Source of the DNA: Clostridia bacterium
Lineage (GTDB): Bacteria; Bacillota; Clostridia; Christensenellales; Aristaeellaceae
Direction of reading: 5' to 3'
Assembly: GCA_017547805.1 (NCBI GenBank)
Contig: JAFYOR010000106.1
Coordinates: 1 to 59,386, forward strand
Length of the DNA: 59,386 nucleotides
Shown here: piece by piece, positions 1 through 46,830 of the stretch
Layout of the letters: each line of letters starts with the position of its first letter
Numbering within the stretch: the first letter of the stretch is position 1
Made by a program: the position numbers and the translations under genes
Notes under the pieces: model-generated
What the model saw: the letters and a program-made list of their open reading frames with translations, nothing else
Told to the model about the DNA's origin: nothing
The model's database searches: none

Positions 1-36
1 AAGAGCTTTTTCTTTTGCGAAAAAACATCGAAGCGA

Positions 37-144
37 GACAGGATTTGAATAAGCCGTAATGAATGACGTGCCAGTGGCACGTCAGAACGGCGCTGACCGA
101 AGGGCCGTCGAGGCCCTGAGAATCCAATCCTGTCACCTCGACCA
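37..144 (+). repeat. tRNA-tail folded element, tRNA-Pro version
   Basis: A 108-bp palindromic element. The left arm (37-50, GACAGGATTTGAAT) is the reverse complement of a tRNA-Pro T-arm. The right arm (119-144) ends in TGTCACCTCGACCA, a tRNA-Pro acceptor 3' strand with CCA. The core has TGAATGA at 60-66, a 5-bp stem CGTGC/GCACG around CAGTG at 72-76, TCAGA at 82-86, TGACCGA at 94-100, and a 6-bp stem AGGGCC/GGCCCT around GTCGA at 107-111. GCCGT (53-57) can pair with ACGGC (87-91). The same conserved blocks occur in three tRNA-Trp copies at 14308, 17250 and 17409. The parent tRNA-Pro must lie left of position 1; assigning it to Pro rests on the acceptor sequence only. Confidence 0.8.
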
Positions 145-533: not shown

Positions 534-1584
534 TCTCTAGCACCTCCAACAGTTCTTCCCCACTAACTTCAAGGGCTACATAGTCATAACGCTTTGCTTC
601 TTCCAAACACACAGCCCGCTCAGTGGCGATATATTCAACAGGGGCGGAATAGAACATATCTGTCAATTCCTTATGCTGATAGCGAATGGTTGCTACTTTG
701 CTAAAATCAATAGTGCGAATGGTTGCTTCGCTCAAACGAAAGGTTTCCTCTGCGGTCTGCAGATTACCACACATGACATAGGATGCCGCAAGTAGCTTCG
801 TCGCTTGCAGATACAAATCATAATGCTCCTGCATTTCTTGTACAGCTCTTCGCTTTTCAGCCAAGTAACCATTATGTGCAAGCTCGCGCAGAAAGCGAAC
901 GGGAGCGGCCTTAGGTAATGGATCGAATTCACGGGCACGACGTTCCAGCGCCTTTTCAATTTGTGCCTGTGCGACGAGAAGGTTCTGTCTGCTGGAATCG
1001 ATTTGACGACTGCGATCGTCCCCTTCAGGCATGGACATTGCTAGAATCAAGCCGTTCTTTCCTGCTTCAAGAAATCCAATGCGGTCATCCATCTGTCCAT
1101 TTTCAATACGCTCTACAGCTCTATAAGTACGCTCCAACAGTTCGGTTATCTGTGCCACTTGCTGCTGCATGAGCATATTGTAGTGTCCATTTGCAAGTTG
1201 CTGAACCGGGTTTCCTTGGATAATTGCTTGCTCTGCGATTGGAAGAGGTGTAACTACCTGCTGTTTTCCGTTTTCAGCGATTTTCATCAGACTGGGCCAC
1301 ATTTTACCAGTCTTCATGTTCTCCATGATAAACATTTCACCAGATTCATAGGCAGCTTGGAATTCAGCAGGAATTTGAACGACATACTGGGTTCCAGCCT
1401 TAATCTCAGCAATGATTTCGCCCATGTTCACACATTGCACAATTTGCCCCAAAAGCGCACGGAAATCGAAGTGCTGATTTTTCTGCGTAATGTATAGACA
1501 CTTTCCTTCTGCAGGAACGGGTATTGAATCCTGTTCGATTTCAACAGGCATATTATTGCCTTCAACGGGAATCATGTTAGGCAT
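526..1584 (-). CDS. Unknown 352-residue protein
   Basis: The start is an ATG seven bases after a GGAGG site, and a TTGACG-N17-TATACT promoter lies about 120 bases upstream. No signal peptide or membrane helix is visible. The middle (about residues 150-270) is rich in Glu, Arg and Ala and probably helical or coiled-coil, consistent with a structural or scaffolding protein. The N-terminal 60 residues look like a loose prefix. No catalytic motif is recognised. Its base composition is AT-richer than the chromosomal genes from 2122 on. The 65-residue gene at 336 follows with an 8-bp overlap. Function unknown; the position suggests cargo of a tRNA-Pro island. Confidence 0.75.
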   Translation of the reverse strand: MPNMIPVEGNNMPVEIEQDSIPVPAEGKCLYITQKNQHFDFRALLGQIVQCVNMGEIIAEIKAGTQYVVQIPAEFQAAYESGEMFIMENMKTGKMWPSLMKIAENGKQQVVTPLPIAEQAIIQGNPVQQLANGHYNMLMQQQVAQITELLERTYRAVERIENGQMDDRIGFLEAGKNGLILAMSMPEGDDRSRQIDSSRQNLLVAQAQIEKALERRAREFDPLPKAAPVRFLRELAHNGYLAEKRRAVQEMQEHYDLYLQATKLLAASYVMCGNLQTAEETFRLSEATIRTIDFSKVATIRYQHKELTDMFYSAPVEYIATERAVCLEEAKRYDYVALEVSGEELLEVLENE

Positions 1585-1699
1585 AGAATACCTCCATCAG
1601 TTTTATTGGTCATAATATACCTTGTTTTTTTCGCGAACAGGGGGCAACCACCAGATAGTATCAAATGGCATCCTAGCTCAATGCCTGCAGCCTATATTA

Positions 1700-14177: not shown

Positions 14178-14251
14178 AGGGGCATGGTGTAATGGTAACA
14201 CGTGGGTCTCCAAAACCTTTGTTGTGGGTTCGAATCCTACTGCCCCTGCCA
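14178..14251 (+). tRNA. tRNA-Trp (CCA anticodon)
   Basis: Acceptor AGGGGCA pairs with TGCCCCT, followed by G and an encoded CCA. The D-stem is GTGT/ACAC, the anticodon loop is CTCCAAA with anticodon CCA, and the T-arm is GTGGG-TTCGAAT-CCTAC. The first anticodon-stem pair is a T-T mismatch, a small departure. This is the only complete copy; its 3' 54 bases are repeated exactly at 19974 and almost exactly at 17142. It is the integration site of the islands that follow. Confidence 0.96.
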
Positions 14252-14295: not shown

Positions 14296-14307
14296 GAATC
14301 ACGGGGA

Positions 14308-14413
14308 AGTGGGATTCGAATGGGGCGGGAGTGAATGACAGCCCAGTGGGCTGTCAGAGCCGCCCTGACCGACGAGCGTCGAGCGAGGAGAAAGAATCCT
14401 ACTGCCCCTGCCA
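14308..14413 (+). repeat. tRNA-tail folded element, tRNA-Trp version, copy 1
   Basis: 106 bp. The left arm (14308-14321, AGTGGGATTCGAAT; extendable to GGGGA at 14303) is the inverted T-arm/acceptor of tRNA-Trp. The right arm (14394-14413) is a direct copy ending CCTACTGCCCCTGCCA. Core: TGAATGA (14332), CAGCC-CAGTG-GGCTG (14339-14353), TCAGA, GCCGCCC, TGACCGA, CGAGC-GTCGA-GCGAG (14373-14387). GGGCGG of the left part can pair with CCGCCC. The CAGCC/GGCTG stem differs from the GGCCA/TGGCC stem of copies 2 and 3 while pairing is kept. Confidence 0.85.
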
Positions 14414-14418
14414 GAATG

Positions 14419-14448
14419 AGCGGCTTCTGAGAAGAAGCCGCTTTTTCT
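14419..14448 (+). terminator. Terminator after tail copy 1
   Basis: Stem AGCGGCTTCT/AGAAGCCGCT with a GAGA loop and T5, five bases after the CCA end. Confidence 0.85.
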
Positions 14449-14482
14449 ATACCTTGTATTCTGAGTGTAGAGGTGCATAATT

Positions 14483-14683
14483 ATGCCAAAGCGAAGTCAT
14501 GTTACATTTGGCTCTCAAGGGCAACATGAGTTTTATTTTCCAACAACTGGTAATGGAACAGAATACAGAAGAACTCGTCAAAAGTGCAAATACTATAATA
14601 CAGAAACCAAATGGTGTACAAAGATATGGAACAACTGTGTCGGCCCAACAATTTGCAGAAAGTTCAAAAGATCTGTTGATTGA
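14483..14683 (+). CDS. Small cysteine-containing protein
   Basis: 66 residues. ATG seven bases after AGAGGTG. Four cysteines at 35, 45, 52 and 58 in a basic, aromatic C-terminal half (CKYYN...WCTKIWN.CVGP.ICRKF) look like a small metal-binding or disulfide fold. I recall similar short cysteine proteins in Firmicutes but no function. An overlapping frame (14499-14744) also reads plausibly; I prefer this one because of the ordered cysteines and the ribosome-binding site. It lies inside the first tRNA-Trp island, next to an integrase remnant. Confidence 0.5.
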   Translation: MPKRSHVTFGSQGQHEFYFPTTGNGTEYRRTRQKCKYYNTETKWCTKIWNNCVGPTICRKFKRSVD

Positions 14684-14689
14684 GTGTCT

Positions 14690-14935
14690 TCATTTCCCCA
14701 CCAACGCCTCATACATCTCCTCAAACCCATCTCCATACAGATGAACATAGACGTTGTACGTAATGTTCACATCTGCATGCCCAAGCAATTTAGAGAGAAT
14801 CTTCACGTCGATCCCTTTGTGATAGCAGTTCGTCGCAAACGTGTGCCTGAACATATGCTCTCCCCTGTAAGCGAGGTCAGCAGCTTTGCAAAGATACTGC
14901 GGCTGGCACCGTAATGCCTCGTGCTGTAAACTTAC
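14690..14935 (-). pseudogene. Tyrosine integrase remnant, C-terminal third
   Basis: It encodes the equivalent of residues about 229-306 of the intact integrase at 17953, with the HMFRHTFATNCY box, LLGHADV and the nucleophile tyrosine of ITYNVYVH intact. The N-terminal domain and the first catalytic arginine are gone, and no start codon is present at the break. The C-terminus EMYEALVGK differs from the intact copy (EMYAALIP) but matches the decayed remnant at 21919. Confidence 0.85.
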
Positions 14936-14964
14936 ATTTTCCGTCAATACGCAGAAATGCAGAC

Positions 14965-14993
14965 TTCTCAAACAAACTTGTGCATGATATACT
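14965..14993 (+). promoter_or_regulatory. Promoter of the permease gene
   Basis: TTCTCA, 17-base spacer, TATACT, 43 bases before the start codon at 15037. No purine riboswitch fold is visible between them. Confidence 0.5.
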
Positions 14994-15036
14994 TTGAATA
15001 GATTACCAATAGAAACTGAAGAAAGAAGGTTCTGTC

Positions 15037-16437
15037 ATGAAGAAAACCAACCGATTGTCCGAGAAAGCTTTCCAGCTGGATGGAAAAATGCCTCTGTCTC
15101 AGGCGATTCCTCTGGGCTTGCAGCATGTTCTGGCTATGTTCGTGGGAAACCTGACGCCGCTGCTGATCATTACCGGTACCTGCGGAATTGCCAGCGGTGA
15201 GTTTGCTGCGCTGCAGCTGCATCTGCTGCAGAATGCCATGCTGATTGCAGGCATTGTTACGCTGGTTCAGCTGTTCTCCATCGGTCCCATCGGCGGCAAT
15301 GTGCCGATCGTCATGGGTACTTCTTCTGGATTCCTTGGCGTGTTCAATTCCGTTGCGGCGACCATGGGCGGCGGCGTGATCGCATATGGCGCTATCATGG
15401 GCGCCGCTATCATTGGCGGTGTTTTTGAAGGCATTCTTGGTTTCTTCCTCAAGCCTCTTCGTAAGTTTTTCCCTGCGGTTGTGACCGGTACCGTGGTCAT
15501 GTCCATTGGTCTGAGTCTGATCTCTGTCGGCATCAATTCCTTTGGCGGCGGCAATACGGCGATGGACTTTGGTTCCATGGAGAATCTGCTGCTGGCTATC
15601 TTTGTTCTGGGCATGATTCTTTTCTTCAAGCATGGAACAAAGGGCTTTACCAGTTCTTCTTCGATCCTTTTGGGCATTACCTGCGGTTACGTGGCAGCGT
15701 TCATCATGGGTATTGTTCTTCCGACCACCGGTGTTACGGCTGATGGCGTTGAGTATACCAAGGCTTGGGTTCTGAATTGGGATAAAGTGGCAAATGCGGC
15801 TTGGTTTGAAATTCCGAAGTTCATGCCCATCAAGCCCGTGTTTGATATGCGTGCGATTCTGCCCGTCATGATCATGTTTGTTGTTACTGCGGTTGAAACC
15901 GTTGGCGATATTTCCGGCGTGATGGAAGGCGGCCTCGGCCGCGAAGCTACGGATAAGGAGCTGTCCGGCGGCGTCATCTGTGATGGTCTGGGTTCCTCCT
16001 TCGCGGCGCTGTTTGGCGTTCTGCCCAATACCTCTTTCAGCCAGAATGTCGGTCTGGTTGCGATGACCAAGGTTGTGAATCGTTTTGCCATCTCGACCGG
16101 TGCGGTCTTCCTGATCCTGTGCGGTCTGTGCCCCAAACTGGGTGCTGTGGTTTCGATTATGCCGCAGGCGGTTTTGGGCGGCGCCGCAGTGATGATGTTC
16201 TCTTCTATCGTGATCAGCGGTATTCAGCTGATCACCAAGGAACCGCTGAACGGCCGCAATCTTTCTATTGTTGCGGTTGCGCTGGGCGTCGGCTATGGCA
16301 TGGGCGCCAATGCGGCTATCTTGAATCATGCGCCGCAGGCCATCAAGCTGATCTTCGGCGGTTCCGGCATTGTTCCGGCAGCGGCAGTTGCGATCCTGCT
16401 GAACATTTTTCTGCCCAGGGAAAAGACAAACGATTAA
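15037..16437 (+). CDS. Uracil/xanthine-type permease (NCS2)
   Basis: 466 residues, 13-14 membrane helices, the normal size. Hallmarks are the N-terminal LGLQHVLAMFVGN, the central VTAVETVGDISG (E and D of the substrate site) and GVLPNTSFSQNVGLVAMTKVVNR, the NCS2 signature region. The last matches the xanthine/urate branch (NTFSQNVG type) better than the uracil branch. The protein imports a purine by proton symport. AGAAAGAAGG precedes the ATG. It sits between the integrase remnant and a tRNA-Trp tail, so it is probable island cargo. It would feed xpt at 3300. Confidence 0.92.
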   Translation: MKKTNRLSEKAFQLDGKMPLSQAIPLGLQHVLAMFVGNLTPLLIITGTCGIASGEFAALQLHLLQNAMLIAGIVTLVQLFSIGPIGGNVPIVMGTSSGFLGVFNSVAATMGGGVIAYGAIMGAAIIGGVFEGILGFFLKPLRKFFPAVVTGTVVMSIGLSLISVGINSFGGGNTAMDFGSMENLLLAIFVLGMILFFKHGTKGFTSSSSILLGITCGYVAAFIMGIVLPTTGVTADGVEYTKAWVLNWDKVANAAWFEIPKFMPIKPVFDMRAILPVMIMFVVTAVETVGDISGVMEGGLGREATDKELSGGVICDGLGSSFAALFGVLPNTSFSQNVGLVAMTKVVNRFAISTGAVFLILCGLCPKLGAVVSIMPQAVLGGAAVMMFSSIVISGIQLITKEPLNGRNLSIVAVALGVGYGMGANAAILNHAPQAIKLIFGGSGIVPAAAVAILLNIFLPREKTND

Positions 16438-16455
16438 CTGTCGTGCATATAAAAG

Positions 16456-16484
16456 GTCTGCCGGAAAAACCGGCAGACTTTTTG
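16456..16484 (+). terminator. Permease terminator
   Basis: Stem GTCTGCCGG/CCGGCAGAC with an A-rich loop and T5. Confidence 0.85.
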
Positions 16485-17013
16485 TATGATATTGAAATCG
16501 ATGAAAATGATATATTCTGGATAAAAGTACTTTAGATGTCACTTTGGAGCAACACGCTTCACAAGGAGGGATGTTGCATTTTGTGATTACAAATGAAGCG
16601 GGTAAGAATGTTTCTTCTGCCGGCTTTGCAGTGGGGCATCGGGGACAAACGCTACGCTGGATGCGACGATGCCGATTTTTGAACGCTGTATTACGTCGTC
16701 GGGACAGTAATTTGGCGATAACGGTTTTTCTTGAAAAGGAAACGATTTTTTACTTTATAGGGGATTGCGTGAAAATCCGGGCGGAGAGCACAGTGAAAAA
16801 TAAGCTTGTGAAGTCGTTCGAAAGTATGAGCGGCTATTGGGTGTTAGTTGTAAAAAGTTGATTGAAGTTGTAGATAGTTGTTCAAAGTTGTACCCATCAA
16901 CAAAAAAGCGCAGCGCTGCAATAAAGCAAGGCTGCGTTTTCCTTTGAAAGAATATCTCCATGCAAGAATCAGCCTTTATTTGTTTTGTGTGGTTATTTCG
17001 TGTTGAGTTGCTC
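16485..17013. other. Stretch without a supported gene
   Basis: The only open frame (from about 16544) has no family resemblance, an unusual composition and a ribosome-binding site that touches its likely ATG, so I do not call it. An imperfect hairpin with CGCAGC/GCTGCG arms and A/T flanks near 16900-16940 could be a terminator. The region is AT-rich and is probably decayed island sequence. Confidence 0.4.
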
Positions 17014-17042
17014 TTGTTTGCTGATGAATGATCATGTATAAT
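17014..17042 (+). promoter_or_regulatory. Outward promoter at the right end of island A
   Basis: TTGTTT, 17-base spacer, TATAAT, then CATTCATA. It points at the tRNA-Trp fragment 100 bases downstream. The same -10 context (TATAAT, two bases, TTCATA) is found at 19882 and 28208, also upstream of tRNA-Trp-like tails. Confidence 0.55.
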
Positions 17043-17141
17043 CATTCATAGTTTGATGAGGTTGGTTATCTGGCGGTTCGTGCAGCAGGATTCAAGAGTG
17101 GAGAAACAGCGCAGAAGTCCGCGTGGGCGACAGCCCACGCT

Positions 17142-17194
17142 CACGTAGGTCTCCAAAACCTTTGTTGTGGGTTCGAATCCTACTGCCCCTGCCA
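17142..17194 (+). repeat. tRNA-Trp 3' fragment (attachment site remnant)
   Basis: 53 bases equal to the anticodon arm, T-arm and acceptor 3' strand of tRNA-Trp with CCA, one mismatch (GTAGGT for GTGGGT). No 5' acceptor or D-arm is present, so it cannot be a tRNA. Instead a perfect hairpin GCGTGGGC/GCCCACGC (17121-17140) precedes it. It is probably the displaced 3' half of the tRNA marking the right end of an integrated island. Confidence 0.9.
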
Positions 17195-17195
17195 A

Positions 17196-17236
17196 ACAAA
17201 AGGCGGTTGTTCCTCGGACCAGCCGCTTTTTGTTTT
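17196..17236 (+). terminator. Terminator after tRNA fragment
   Basis: Stem of ACAAAAGGCGG with CCGCTTTTTGT and a trailing T run. It keeps the ACAAAA/TTTTGT frame of the authentic tRNA-Trp terminator, but the inner sequence differs. Confidence 0.8.
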
Positions 17237-17249
17237 CCAATTAAGGGGA

Positions 17250-17355
17250 AGTAGGATTCGAATGGGGCGGGAGTGAATGAGGCCACAGTGTGGCCTCAGA
17301 GCCGCCCTGACCGACGAGCGTCGAGCGAGGAGAAAGAATCCTACTGCCCCTGCCA
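17250..17355 (+). repeat. tRNA-tail folded element, tRNA-Trp version, copy 2
   Basis: 106 bp. The left arm AGTAGGATTCGAAT is a perfect inverse of GAATCCTACT on the right. Core: TGAATGA, GGCCA-CAGTG-TGGCC, TCAGA, GCCGCCC, TGACCGA, CGAGC-GTCGA-GCGAG. It ends CCTACTGCCCCTGCCA at 17355. The left flank AGGGGA (17244) extends the inverted repeat into the acceptor strand. Confidence 0.88.
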
Positions 17356-17395
17356 ACAAAGAACGATCGGCTTTAGCCGGTCGTTTTTTGTTTTT
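17356..17395 (+). terminator. Terminator after tail copy 2
   Basis: ACAAAGAACGA paired with TCGTTTTTTGT around an inner CGGC/GCCG stem, then T5. Confidence 0.8.
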
Positions 17396-17408
17396 CATTT
17401 AAGGGGGA

Positions 17409-17514
17409 AGTGGGATTCGAATGGGGCGGGAGTGAATGAGGCCACAGTGTGGCCTCAGAGCCGCCCTGACCGACGAGCGTCGAGCGAGGAGAAAGAATCC
17501 TACTGCCCCTGCCA
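17409..17514 (+). repeat. tRNA-tail folded element, tRNA-Trp version, copy 3
   Basis: 106 bp, identical to copy 2 except for one base in the left arm (AGTGGG for AGTAGG). It is spaced 53 bp from copy 2, the space being filled by a terminator. Copies 2 and 3 form a direct tandem of about 160-bp units. Confidence 0.88.
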
Positions 17515-17661: not shown

Positions 17662-17883
17662 ATGAACGATCATAAGAAATTCGAACTAAACAACGACGAG
17701 CTGGATTTGGTGGTCGGTGGCGCTCAACAAGAAACTGTTCAACTCACTCCAGGAAGTCGTTATTACCGTTGCAGAAACTGTGGCGCTCAAGTCGCAACCA
17801 AACAATCTTGCCCCGTGTGTAAACGATATACTTGGACTATAGTTGACTGCCAGGATAGTGCACGCGTTACACTGTATGTCTGA
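17662..17883 (+). CDS. Double-glycine leader peptide with zinc-ribbon core
   Basis: 73 residues. ATG after AAGGAGGCAGAACA. The leader ELNNDELDLVVGG (residues 8-20) fits the bacteriocin/ComC consensus LSxxELxxIxGG. Cleavage after G20 would release a 53-residue core. The core has CRNC (37-40) and CPVC (50-53), a C-x2-C-x9-C-x2-C zinc-ribbon pattern, plus C63. Known families with such leaders are exported by ABC transporters carrying a C39 peptidase, but none is adjacent; the nearest candidates are the C39-like protein at 50528 and the exporters at 46865-50366. It could be a bacteriocin, a signal or a modified peptide. The expected role is secretion, and the function is unknown. The gene is bracketed by two similar terminator hairpins (17517, 17915) and lies in the tRNA-Trp island. 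Confidence 0.8.
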   Translation: MNDHKKFELNNDELDLVVGGAQQETVQLTPGSRYYRCRNCGAQVATKQSCPVCKRYTWTIVDCQDSARVTLYV

Positions 17884-19973: not shown

Positions 19974-20027
19974 ACACGTGGGTCTCCAAAACCTTTGTTG
20001 TGGGTTCGAATCCTACTGCCCCTGCCA
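19974..20027 (+). repeat. tRNA-Trp 3' fragment, exact 54-bp copy
   Basis: Identical to 14198-14251 of the tRNA gene (anticodon arm, T-arm, acceptor strand, CCA). The 5' part is missing and replaced by a hairpin GGTGGGCG/CGCCCGCC (about 19955-19973). This is the right attachment site of the island that carries the intact integrase. Confidence 0.93.
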
Positions 20028-20028
20028 C

Positions 20029-20061
20029 ACAGCCGGTTTCGTGAGAGACCGGCTGTTTTTA
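20029..20061 (+). terminator. Terminator after tRNA fragment
   Basis: Stem ACAGCCGGTTTC/GAGACCGGCTGT with a GTGA loop and T5. Confidence 0.85.
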
Positions 20062-46699: not shown

Positions 46700-46830
46700 G
46701 GCAGAACCGAAAGCGCTGCCTGCGGCAGCTGTTCGGTTCTTGTGTACGCAGGCTGCGCATGTTCGGGGAACGATTGGGGTTTCACCCCAAACCCTGACAA
46801 GGGATTTCATCCCTTGACCCTTCTTCGCTT
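46700..46830. repeat. Multi-hairpin intergenic repeat
   Basis: Four nested or adjacent hairpins: AGAACCGA/TCGGTTCT (46703-46740) enclosing GCTGCC-TGC-GGCAGC, TTGGGGT-TTC-ACCCCAA (46774-46790) and AAGGGAT-TTC-ATCCCTT (46799-46815), followed by GACCC. From memory, the last two resemble dispersed non-coding repeats of Oscillospiraceae-type genomes. No gene is in 46590-46864. Confidence 0.6.

What the first reader, a model, noticed from the sequence alone, without database searches (positions are those of the whole stretch)
14308..17514. A structured element with covarying stems recurs behind two different tRNAs
Three 106-bp copies follow tRNA-Trp sequence (14308, 17250, 17409) and one 108-bp copy follows a tRNA-Pro tail (37-144). 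In all four the blocks TGAATGA, CAGTG, TCAGA, TGACCGA and GTCGA are identical and in the same order. The stem around CAGTG is CAGCC/GGCTG, GGCCA/TGGCC or CGTGC/GCACG, with pairing kept each time. A second stem is GGGCGG/CCGCCC (Trp) or GCCGT/ACGGC (Pro). The stem around GTCGA is AGGGCC/GGCCCT (Pro), but CGAGC/GCGAG (Trp) contains two adjacent G-A mismatches, so pairing there is only partial. Preserved pairing with changed sequence is direct evidence that the fold is selected, as RNA or as single-stranded DNA. I know no named family with this layout.
Basis: seen in the sequence. Interest (0 to 1): 0.92.

Follow-up and report, generated by a model that had tools for sequence, protein, structure and literature searches.

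The report
Hairpin repeats copying adjacent tRNA tails
Behind many tRNA genes of certain gut Clostridia sits a small folded DNA repeat whose outer stem is an inverted copy of that very tRNA's own tail, which looks like a gene-less mobile element that keeps the tRNA intact while moving from one tRNA to another.

Summary
All four copies are in the window; the genome has 39 model matches. The core is an 8-bp stem with loop CAGTG inside a second stem, followed by a third hairpin. Pairing covaries very strongly (all seven variable pairs of the inner stem change on both sides), almost without G-U pairs (1 of 777 cells, against 30 of 468 in tRNA stems of the same loci). That points to folded DNA rather than RNA.

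The missed key is the outer stem. Its 3' arm is the 3' end of the tRNA just upstream (T-loop to CCA) and its 5' arm is the reverse complement. Layout: tRNA-T-terminator-T'-core-T-terminator, so the tRNA stays whole. Copies with clear arms follow 20 anticodons and tmRNA; none was found mirrored; both joints lie at nt 53-57 in nearly all. Other copies cap hairpins of two further repeat families. Presence is patchy and seen only in Clostridia. At some syntenic tRNA places two congeners carry different cores, each closer to a core at another tRNA of its own genome. No linked gene and no Rfam match were found.

Best reading: a non-autonomous, structured mobile DNA repeat landing at T-arms. The enzyme is unknown.

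The parts
14178..14251 (+). tRNA-Trp(cca), the gene whose 3' end is copied
   Evidence: ARAGORN, Rfam tRNA 62.4 bits
14252..14294 (+). terminator-like palindrome with T-run (P) directly after CCA
   Evidence: read
14303..14320 (+). copy 1, 5' arm T': reverse complement of the tRNA-Trp tail, ending GAA (complement of T-loop TTC)
   Evidence: read; own tail scores 14, best other tail 13
14321..14393 (+). copy 1, conserved core (P2 14323-14328/14360-14365; P3 14336-14343/14349-14356, loop CAGTG 14344-14348; P4 14373-14377/14383-14387, loop GTCGA)
   Evidence: (105 bits)
14394..14413 (+). copy 1, 3' arm T: tRNA-Trp tail GAATCC...TGCCA
   Evidence: 20 letters identical to the tRNA end
17142..17203 (+). 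truncated tRNA-Trp 3' part (anticodon loop to CCA and a few letters more) upstream of copy 2
   Evidence: 98% match to the tRNA query
17245..17355 (+). copy 2 (T' 17245-17262, core, T 17336-17355)
   Evidence: 99.2 bits
17404..17514 (+). copy 3 (T' 17404-17421, core, T 17495-17514)
   Evidence: 100.8 bits
35..144 (+). tRNA-Pro copy (T' 35-49, core about 50-120, T 126-144); its tRNA-Pro lies on contig C6
   Evidence: 76.3 bits
46796..46820 (-). REP-B hairpin without the core, one of 11 pattern matches in the genome; a simple-loop version of the stems that carry the core elsewhere in the genome

Best explanation
It is a non-autonomous mobile DNA repeat that works through its folded single strand. 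Shown: a conserved core of about 75 bp (two stacked stems with conserved unpaired letters plus a third hairpin) closes an outer stem taken from the landing place. At tRNA and tmRNA genes that outer stem is the gene's own 3' end, from the T-loop to CCA (T), and its reverse complement (T'). The result is gene-T-terminator-T'-core-T-terminator, so the gene keeps a complete 3' end and a terminator. Indicated by comparison of congeners: cores move between different tRNAs while the arms follow the target. Inferred: a host or mobile-element recombinase or nuclease that recognises the folded core cuts at the T-loop, and the inverted arm T' arises by fold-back copying of the target tail (or by recombination of a T-T' dumbbell into the tail, as in integron-like single-strand recombination). 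Tandem T repeats then let the array expand, contract and be re-copied from the tRNA.
For: Copies: 39 model matches in this genome. Patchy presence: 26 of 150 family genomes by strict pattern; 14 of 248 order genomes and 1 of 299 phylum genomes by model at E<=1e-8, the own genome counted in each. Fold: covariation score 0.675 against 0.161+-0.013 in shuffles, 0/500, and all 7 P3 pairs with double changes in 59 distinct cores. DNA signature: P3 has 767 Watson-Crick, 1 G-U and 9 mispaired cells in 111 cores, against 30 G-U of 468 in tRNA acceptor/T stems of the same loci. Targeting: 57 of 104 testable cores lie within 260 nt behind a same-strand tRNA/tmRNA, 0 mirrored; 49 of the 57 have a clear 3' arm, behind 20 anticodons and tmRNA; that arm starts at nt 54-57 in 45 of 49, and T' ends at nt 53-54 in 47 of 50 scored 5' arms. 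Own tail is best or tied for the 3' arm in 26 of 27 and for the 5' arm in 24 of 27. A tail polymorphism (GAGTCC/GAATCC) in tRNA-Trp is mirrored in T' and, but for one later change, in T. Presence/absence at one tRNA: element in 3 of 11 tRNA-Trp flanks read in one genus, 5 of 8 in the window's genus. Movement: at syntenic places of congeners G550/G569 the first cores differ (Val 0.68, with 90.6% identity over the 3.1-kb locus; Arg 0.76; Glu 0.76) and each is closer to a core at another tRNA of its own genome (0.79-0.90); G569 has an extra Trp unit closest to its own Arg core (0.89). Versions of the REP-B stem without core exist in the same genome.
Against: No transposase or other gene recurs near the copies. 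No Y1 transposase was found in the genome, which is 83% complete. No clean empty/filled pair at a tRNA: the nearest pair showed a swap or fusion of caps instead. Some cores (Ser, tmRNA, Cys, Gln) are conserved between the congeners at 0.90-1.0, and the G550 Trp core recurs at the same place in a damaged first unit of G569, as vertical inheritance of an old or useful element would give. No replication-strand bias was seen by GC skew: 14 of 27 own copies on the G-rich strand, 13 not (counted by hand because the script stopped before its test). Two T.G pairs occur in P3 of pattern matches outside the counted loci (both in G135). Nothing shows excision, transposition or transcription.
Confidence: 0.58

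Rival explanations
1. It is a functional non-coding RNA: a tRNA-like minihelix (acceptor plus T stem, CCA end) with an inserted structured cap, made from read-through past the first terminator and used in tRNA processing or regulation.
For: RNA fold z -5.23; the arm reaches CCA in 37 of 57 tRNA-linked copies; sense with the tRNA in all 57, none mirrored; a non-canonical covarying site beside P3 (G.G 91, A.A 10, T.C 4 of 111) of the kind seen in RNA internal loops (recalled); some cores conserved between species.
Against: G-U pairs practically absent; copies away from tRNAs share the core but not tRNA-like arms; 20 of 57 arms do not reach CCA; a terminator stands between the tRNA and the element; patchy presence; no Rfam match.
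Confidence: 0.17
2. It is an integron-like array: tRNA tails serve as the double-stranded attachment site and the folded single strand T'-core-T as an attC-like site for a tyrosine recombinase, the 'cassettes' being little more than terminators.
For: Same layout as a cassette array (site, cassette, folded site, cassette, folded site); tandem copies in the window and at L002, L004, L007, L020, L079, L159 and L160; direct repeats of the tail from T-loop to CCA as in tRNA-integrating elements; an integrase remnant beside the tRNA-Trp.
Against: The arms differ for each tRNA, which one recombinase site would not be expected to do; copies in REP stems have no tRNA tail; no recombinase recurs near the copies; integrase sequence similar by eye also stands at tRNA-Trp in two genomes where I saw no core in the flank read (L198, L235).
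Confidence: 0.15
3. No enzyme is dedicated to it: hairpin-prone DNA is duplicated and perfected by template switching during replication and repair, and the repeats spread by ordinary recombination.
For: Wobble-free, nearly perfect stems; T-terminator-T' is a near palindrome by eye; caps of different kinds sit on the same stem.
Against: Conserved unpaired letters: of 29 model matches in two genomes, found without a fixed pattern, 26 have TGAAT and 24 TGAAT plus AGA at fixed spacing; a fixed junction in the T-loop suggests sequence-specific recognition; the same core occurs in unrelated stems.
Confidence: 0.1

Closest known systems
REP sequences / REPtrons of RAYT (TnpA-REP) transposases
   Same: Short, many-copy, intergenic, imperfect hairpins recognised as single strand; GTAG or GGAG stands before TGAAT in 67 of 111 cores.
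   Different: The tetranucleotide is not fixed (17 variants); no Y1 transposase found in this genome; two nested stems plus a third hairpin; arms copied from the target tRNA. A paper on GTAG repeats names Proteobacteria, Cyanobacteria, Chloroflexi and PVC as their hosts (PMC3733652, passages read); its main text has no hit for Firmicutes.
Integron attC sites and cassette arrays
   Same: Stem arms vary, folded single strand, tandem direct arrangement behind a fixed first site.
   Different: The apical part is the conserved part here; no integrase found nearby; many unrelated first sites (tRNAs). Features of attC are recalled; integron papers were seen only as a listing with abstract starts.
tRNA-3'-end integrative elements (tyrosine integrases)
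   Same: Insertion from the T-loop with the 3' tail restored as a direct repeat.
   Different: About 160 bp, no genes, any tRNA or tmRNA, an extra inverted copy of the tail.
Insertion sequences that use REPs as targets
   Same: Palindromic repeats as landing places (PMC1525189, search listing and start of abstract only).
   Different: Gene-less; the landing hairpin becomes the outer stem of the element.

Membership tests
RAYT-type REP | Fixed GTAG tetranucleotide at the hairpin foot | tested here: not met
   GTAG 34 and GGAG 33 of 111; the other 44 differ; and the inner hairpin starts several nt further on. PMC8266576 (passages) says GTAG changes are tolerated in some RAYT groups
RAYT-type REP | Y1 (IS200/IS605-type) transposase in the carrier | tested here: inconclusive
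   PF01797: 0 matches in own genome, control rang in 5 of 14 genomes, but the genome is 83% complete and other carriers were not tested
Integron attC array | Integron integrase gene with its array | tested here: inconclusive
   No protein family recurs near copies; the whole genome was not searched for IntI
Integron attC array | Folded arms with tandem layout behind a first site | tested here: met
   Arrays read; fold
tRNA-integrating element | Direct repeat of the tRNA 3' end restoring the gene | tested here: met
   37 of 57 arms reach CCA; 45 of 49 clear arms start at nt 54-57
tRNA-integrating element | Integrase within the inserted unit | tested here: not met
   Units of about 160 bp; no ORF family recurs
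Named RNA family (Rfam 15) | Match at gathering score | tested here: not met
   Only tRNA found in the window and in 10 further loci

The most novel reading that the evidence does not exclude
A class of mobile DNA that wears its target: a structured single-stranded core that lands on the universal T-arm of any tRNA or tmRNA gene, copies that gene's own tail into an inverted outer stem, hands the gene back a complete 3' end and terminator, and can jump to another tRNA and rewrite its arms there. It would be driven by an undescribed folded-ssDNA enzyme, with exchangeable caps (core-1, core-2) using the same stem.
Probability: 0.4. Interest if true: 0.88.

Novelty: new variant of a known kind. 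Interest (0 to 1): 0.72.

Why it matters
If right, it is a gene-less element that uses the one motif shared by tRNA and tmRNA genes as a safe landing place, and whose outer stem records where it landed. It gives natural comparison series (many tRNAs, several congeners) for studying folded single-strand DNA recombination in gut Clostridia. The near absence of G-U pairs is a simple test, usable elsewhere, for telling DNA-level from RNA-level structure in covarying repeats.

Tried and rejected
Rfam search at loose threshold: besides tRNA, 17 matches, all below their gathering scores and without a shared pattern among the copies (best E 0.0034). Viral scan: 3 contigs hold a core; two of them carry the same sequence, a core behind a terminator with a tRNA-like tail on its far side, and the third has it in a REP context. 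The ORFs listed for one of them (L223) show no obvious phage gene by eye; their families were not searched. Phages and plasmids by blastn with one core as query: no match. Partner gene by neighbourhood clustering within 3 kb: the families recurring in 3 or more genomes look like read-throughs of tRNA and repeat sequence. Replication-strand bias by GC skew: none seen (14 of 27 copies positive, 13 negative, counted by hand; the script's tRNA/REP labels failed and it stopped before the test). I considered stable GNA triloops in P4 as a DNA argument and dropped it: the commonest P4 loops by script are CGCA, GAGC and GTCGA (76 of 111 hairpins found). Scan for tails T' behind all RNA genes in hand: 22 of 140 reach the threshold, 15 with core-1, 7 others, but 1.9% of 2800 controls do too and older arms are missed. 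One search used a wrong-frame ORF as query and found nothing.

Biases. A first alignment (A1) was filtered for P3 pairing. Searches are unfiltered: 77 of 78 pattern matches keep the stem with at most one mispair, T.G pair or bulge, by my reading of the listing (two T.G pairs, both G135); the exception, G137, looks like a chance match in coding sequence. In one search, 112 cores were kept and 0 rejected for lack of pairing; I later dropped one as a chance A+T-rich match (one search uses 111). The pattern demands TGAAT and A(G/A)A, so their invariance there is built in; one search gives the less biased count. In 'orthologue' meant the same tRNA type only. One search checked synteny and changed my reading of Trp (the true counterpart is a damaged first unit in G569) and showed that Ala cannot be compared (the first unit in G569 is masked); the report uses only Val, Arg, Glu and the extra Trp unit.

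Papers: searches in the open-licence library listed no paper that I recognised as describing such an element; I judged by titles and abstract starts, and subscription papers and preprints are not held.
Full report
What is there. The genome that holds the window (2.67 Mb, 113 contigs, 83% complete) has 20 strict-pattern copies, with 0 for the pattern read backwards, and 39 matches to a covariance model built from 34 copies; a few matches at contig ends may be one copy twice. In 25 of these the inner stem is kept; I set two aside by eye, and the titles of the other 23 name Clostridia, Clostridiales, Oscillospiraceae or Christensenella. By model at E<=1e-8 the element is in 14 of 248 genomes of the window's order (8 of 115 genera) and in 1 of 299 of the phylum, the window's own. 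By strict pattern it is in 26 of 150 of the family. The spread is patchy.

Fold. On 59 distinct cores (chosen for diversity from 107) all seven variable pairs of the inner stem and six of seven of the stem below show changes on both sides. The covariation score is 0.675 against 0.161 (sd 0.013) in shuffles and at most 0.103 when the partners are slid in either alignment (0.084 here; 0.103). The loop is C.GTG in 90% or more. TGAAT and AGA are fixed there by my search pattern; among 29 model matches in two genomes, found without that pattern, 26 have TGAAT and 24 have TGAAT and AGA at the fixed spacing. The third hairpin is looser: its stem, length and loop vary, but C(N)GA...GAG stands around it in 78 of 111. 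Beside the inner stem two unpaired positions also change together (G.G 91, A.A 10, T.C 4, others 6 of 111). Folded alone, copy 1 is more stable than each of 200 shuffles, as DNA (z -3.95) and as RNA (z -5.23).

DNA rather than RNA. In 111 distinct cores the inner stem has 767 Watson-Crick, 1 G-U and 9 mispaired cells. Acceptor and T stems of tRNAs in the same loci have 30 G-U of 468. Fisher's p is 2e-12, but sequences are related, so the number overstates the case; the contrast does not depend on it. Two more T.G pairs stand in pattern matches outside these loci. Single-step G-U intermediates, normal in RNA evolution, are practically missing. This fits hairpins kept as DNA, by recognition of the folded strand or by fold-back copying, and it weakens the claim that pairing alone proves selection.

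The outer stem is the neighbouring tRNA. At tRNA genes the order is gene - T - terminator - T' - core - T - terminator, where T is the gene's own 3' end from the T-loop to CCA and T' its reverse complement ending in GAA, the complement of T-loop TTC. Among 27 copies with a tRNA within 400 nt upstream, the own tail is the best or tied match for the 3' arm in 26 and for the 5' arm in 24 (23 tails compared). Of 111 cores, 7 were too near a contig end; of the other 104, 57 lie within 260 nt behind a same-strand tRNA or tmRNA, none in the mirrored arrangement, and 47 have none called. The 47 include tandem second copies, tRNA-like tails not called, and copies in other repeats. The 57 stand behind 21 anticodons and tmRNA; the 49 with a clear 3' arm behind 20 anticodons and tmRNA (the three Cys copies are not clear). 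The 3' arm starts at nt 54-57 in 45 of 49 and reaches CCA in 37 of 57; T' ends at nt 53 or 54 in 47 of 50 scored arms. In two congeners (G550, G569; 29 copies) a tRNA or tmRNA is called upstream of 26 copies, one of them 727 nt away; two more follow an uncalled tRNA-like tail and one follows none. The freshest-looking copies (Arg in L291, Trp in L296) have nearly complete arms on both sides.

Arms follow the tRNA. In one genus the tRNA-Trp tail reads TTCGAGTCC in G108 and G146 and TTCGAATCC in G189; T' reads GGACTCGAA and GGATTCGAA accordingly, and the 3' arm GAGTCC (G108), GTGTCC (G146, one change) and GAATCC (G189). Of 11 tRNA-Trp flanks read in that genus (of 28 genomes searched) 3 carry the element; of 8 read in the window's genus (of 29) 5 do.

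Signs of movement. G550 and G569 have flanks 93-94% identical in two searches. Cores behind Ser, tmRNA, Cys and Gln are 0.90-1.0 identical between them. But at Val, where the whole 3.1-kb locus aligns at 90.6%, the single cores are only 0.68 identical, and each is closer to a core at another tRNA of its own genome (0.79; 0.84). The same holds at Arg (0.76 against 0.90 and 0.89) and Glu (0.76 against 0.83 and 0.86), with syntenic upstream flanks. At Trp the G550 core recurs in a damaged first unit of G569, and G569 has a second unit whose core is closest to its own Arg core (0.89). Ala could not be compared. At the tRNA-Leu place G569 has this core, while G550 and G692 have another cap, 'core-2', a terminator-like hairpin with an AGT or GGT loop, between the same arms. 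At tRNA-Pro G569 has core-2, G692 core-1, and G550 both, joined by a short T-loop hairpin. Caps are thus exchangeable on one stem. I found no clean empty site at a tRNA.

Copies away from tRNAs. By hand, 17 of the 39 matches in this genome cap the first hairpin of a second repeat family (REP-B, GGGTCAAGGG...CCCTTGTC followed by AGGGTTTGGGG or similar), of which 11 pattern matches without the core exist. In relatives the core also sits in a third family (REP-A, CTTCCCC...GGGG, then a hairpin and TGACTGATGAGG or similar). What these places share is a hairpin whose loop region is replaced by the core.

No gene recurs near the copies. The genome showed no Y1 transposase, though it is incomplete. 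One core used as query found no phage or plasmid record. No Rfam family matches at gathering score.

How it most likely works. Shown: conserved core, target-derived arms, fixed junctions in the T-loop, one orientation, restored tRNA 3' end; indicated: exchange of cores between tRNAs. Inferred: an enzyme reads the folded core as single strand and cuts at the T-loop; T' is made by fold-back copying of the tail, or a T-terminator-T'-core dumbbell recombines into the tail; repeated tails then homogenise by slippage and recombination. The enzyme, the intermediate and any host benefit are unknown.

Comparison. It works like REP and attC sites in that a folded strand seems to be the active form. It is not shown to be a member of either: the RAYT tetranucleotide is not fixed (GTAG 34, GGAG 33 of 111), and no integrase was found to travel with it. 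Passages on RAYT REPs were read in PMC3733652 and PMC8266576; the two passages shown of PMC12306157, a REP survey, say nothing of tRNA-linked copies; integron papers were seen only as a search listing with abstract starts. None of the paper searches listed a paper that I recognised as describing this element.

Noticed in passing
window 14690-14971 (-): C-terminal remnant of a tyrosine integrase (PF00589, E 9e-13) just behind tRNA-Trp; two related genomes without the core in the flank read (L198, L235) show similar sequence, by eye, at the same tRNA.
   Followed up: partly
window 17142-17203 and 19974-20031: Two further tRNA-Trp 3' parts (anticodon loop to CCA), as left by integrative elements that cross over in the anticodon arm (mechanism recalled); the tRNA-Trp locus looks like an insertion hot spot.
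   Followed up: partly
L307, L308, L315, L290, L322: A second cap, 'core-2' (in L290 GCCGCG TTCAGAAAAAGCCGC AGT GCGGCTTTTTT A GCGGC AAGGG), sits between tRNA-tail arms where core-1 does in relatives.
   Followed up: partly
L154, about 65-120 nt upstream of its core-1: A third cap behind tRNA-Ser(gga) with a CCGCCAGTGGCGG hairpin between GGGATTCGAA and AAGTCCC; AGT-loop hairpins recur in several repeats of these genomes.
   Followed up: no
own genome, e.g. window 46796-46820 (-): REP-B repeat family (GGGTCAAGGG..CCCTTGTC), 11 pattern matches without the core in this genome.
   Followed up: partly
L263 about 1490-1590 (reverse strand of the locus): The core lies inside what looks like a copy of the antisense 5' half of tRNA-Leu(caa): AGCACG | element | CTGCCAATTCC against AGCACGTCTGCCAATTCC, a possible simple insertion without arms (by eye).
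   Followed up: no
window 17662-17883 (+): Small ORF (73 aa) with a leader-like ELDLVVGG and two CxxC pairs, possibly a bacteriocin-like or modified peptide precursor (label recalled, not tested).
   Followed up: no
window 15037-16437 (+): Xanthine/uracil permease (PF00860, E 3e-77) between the tRNA-Trp copies.
   Followed up: no
window 1-144 and contig C6 end: The assembly breaks inside the tRNA-Pro copy; both contigs share its sequence, as repeats of this kind would cause.
   Followed up: no
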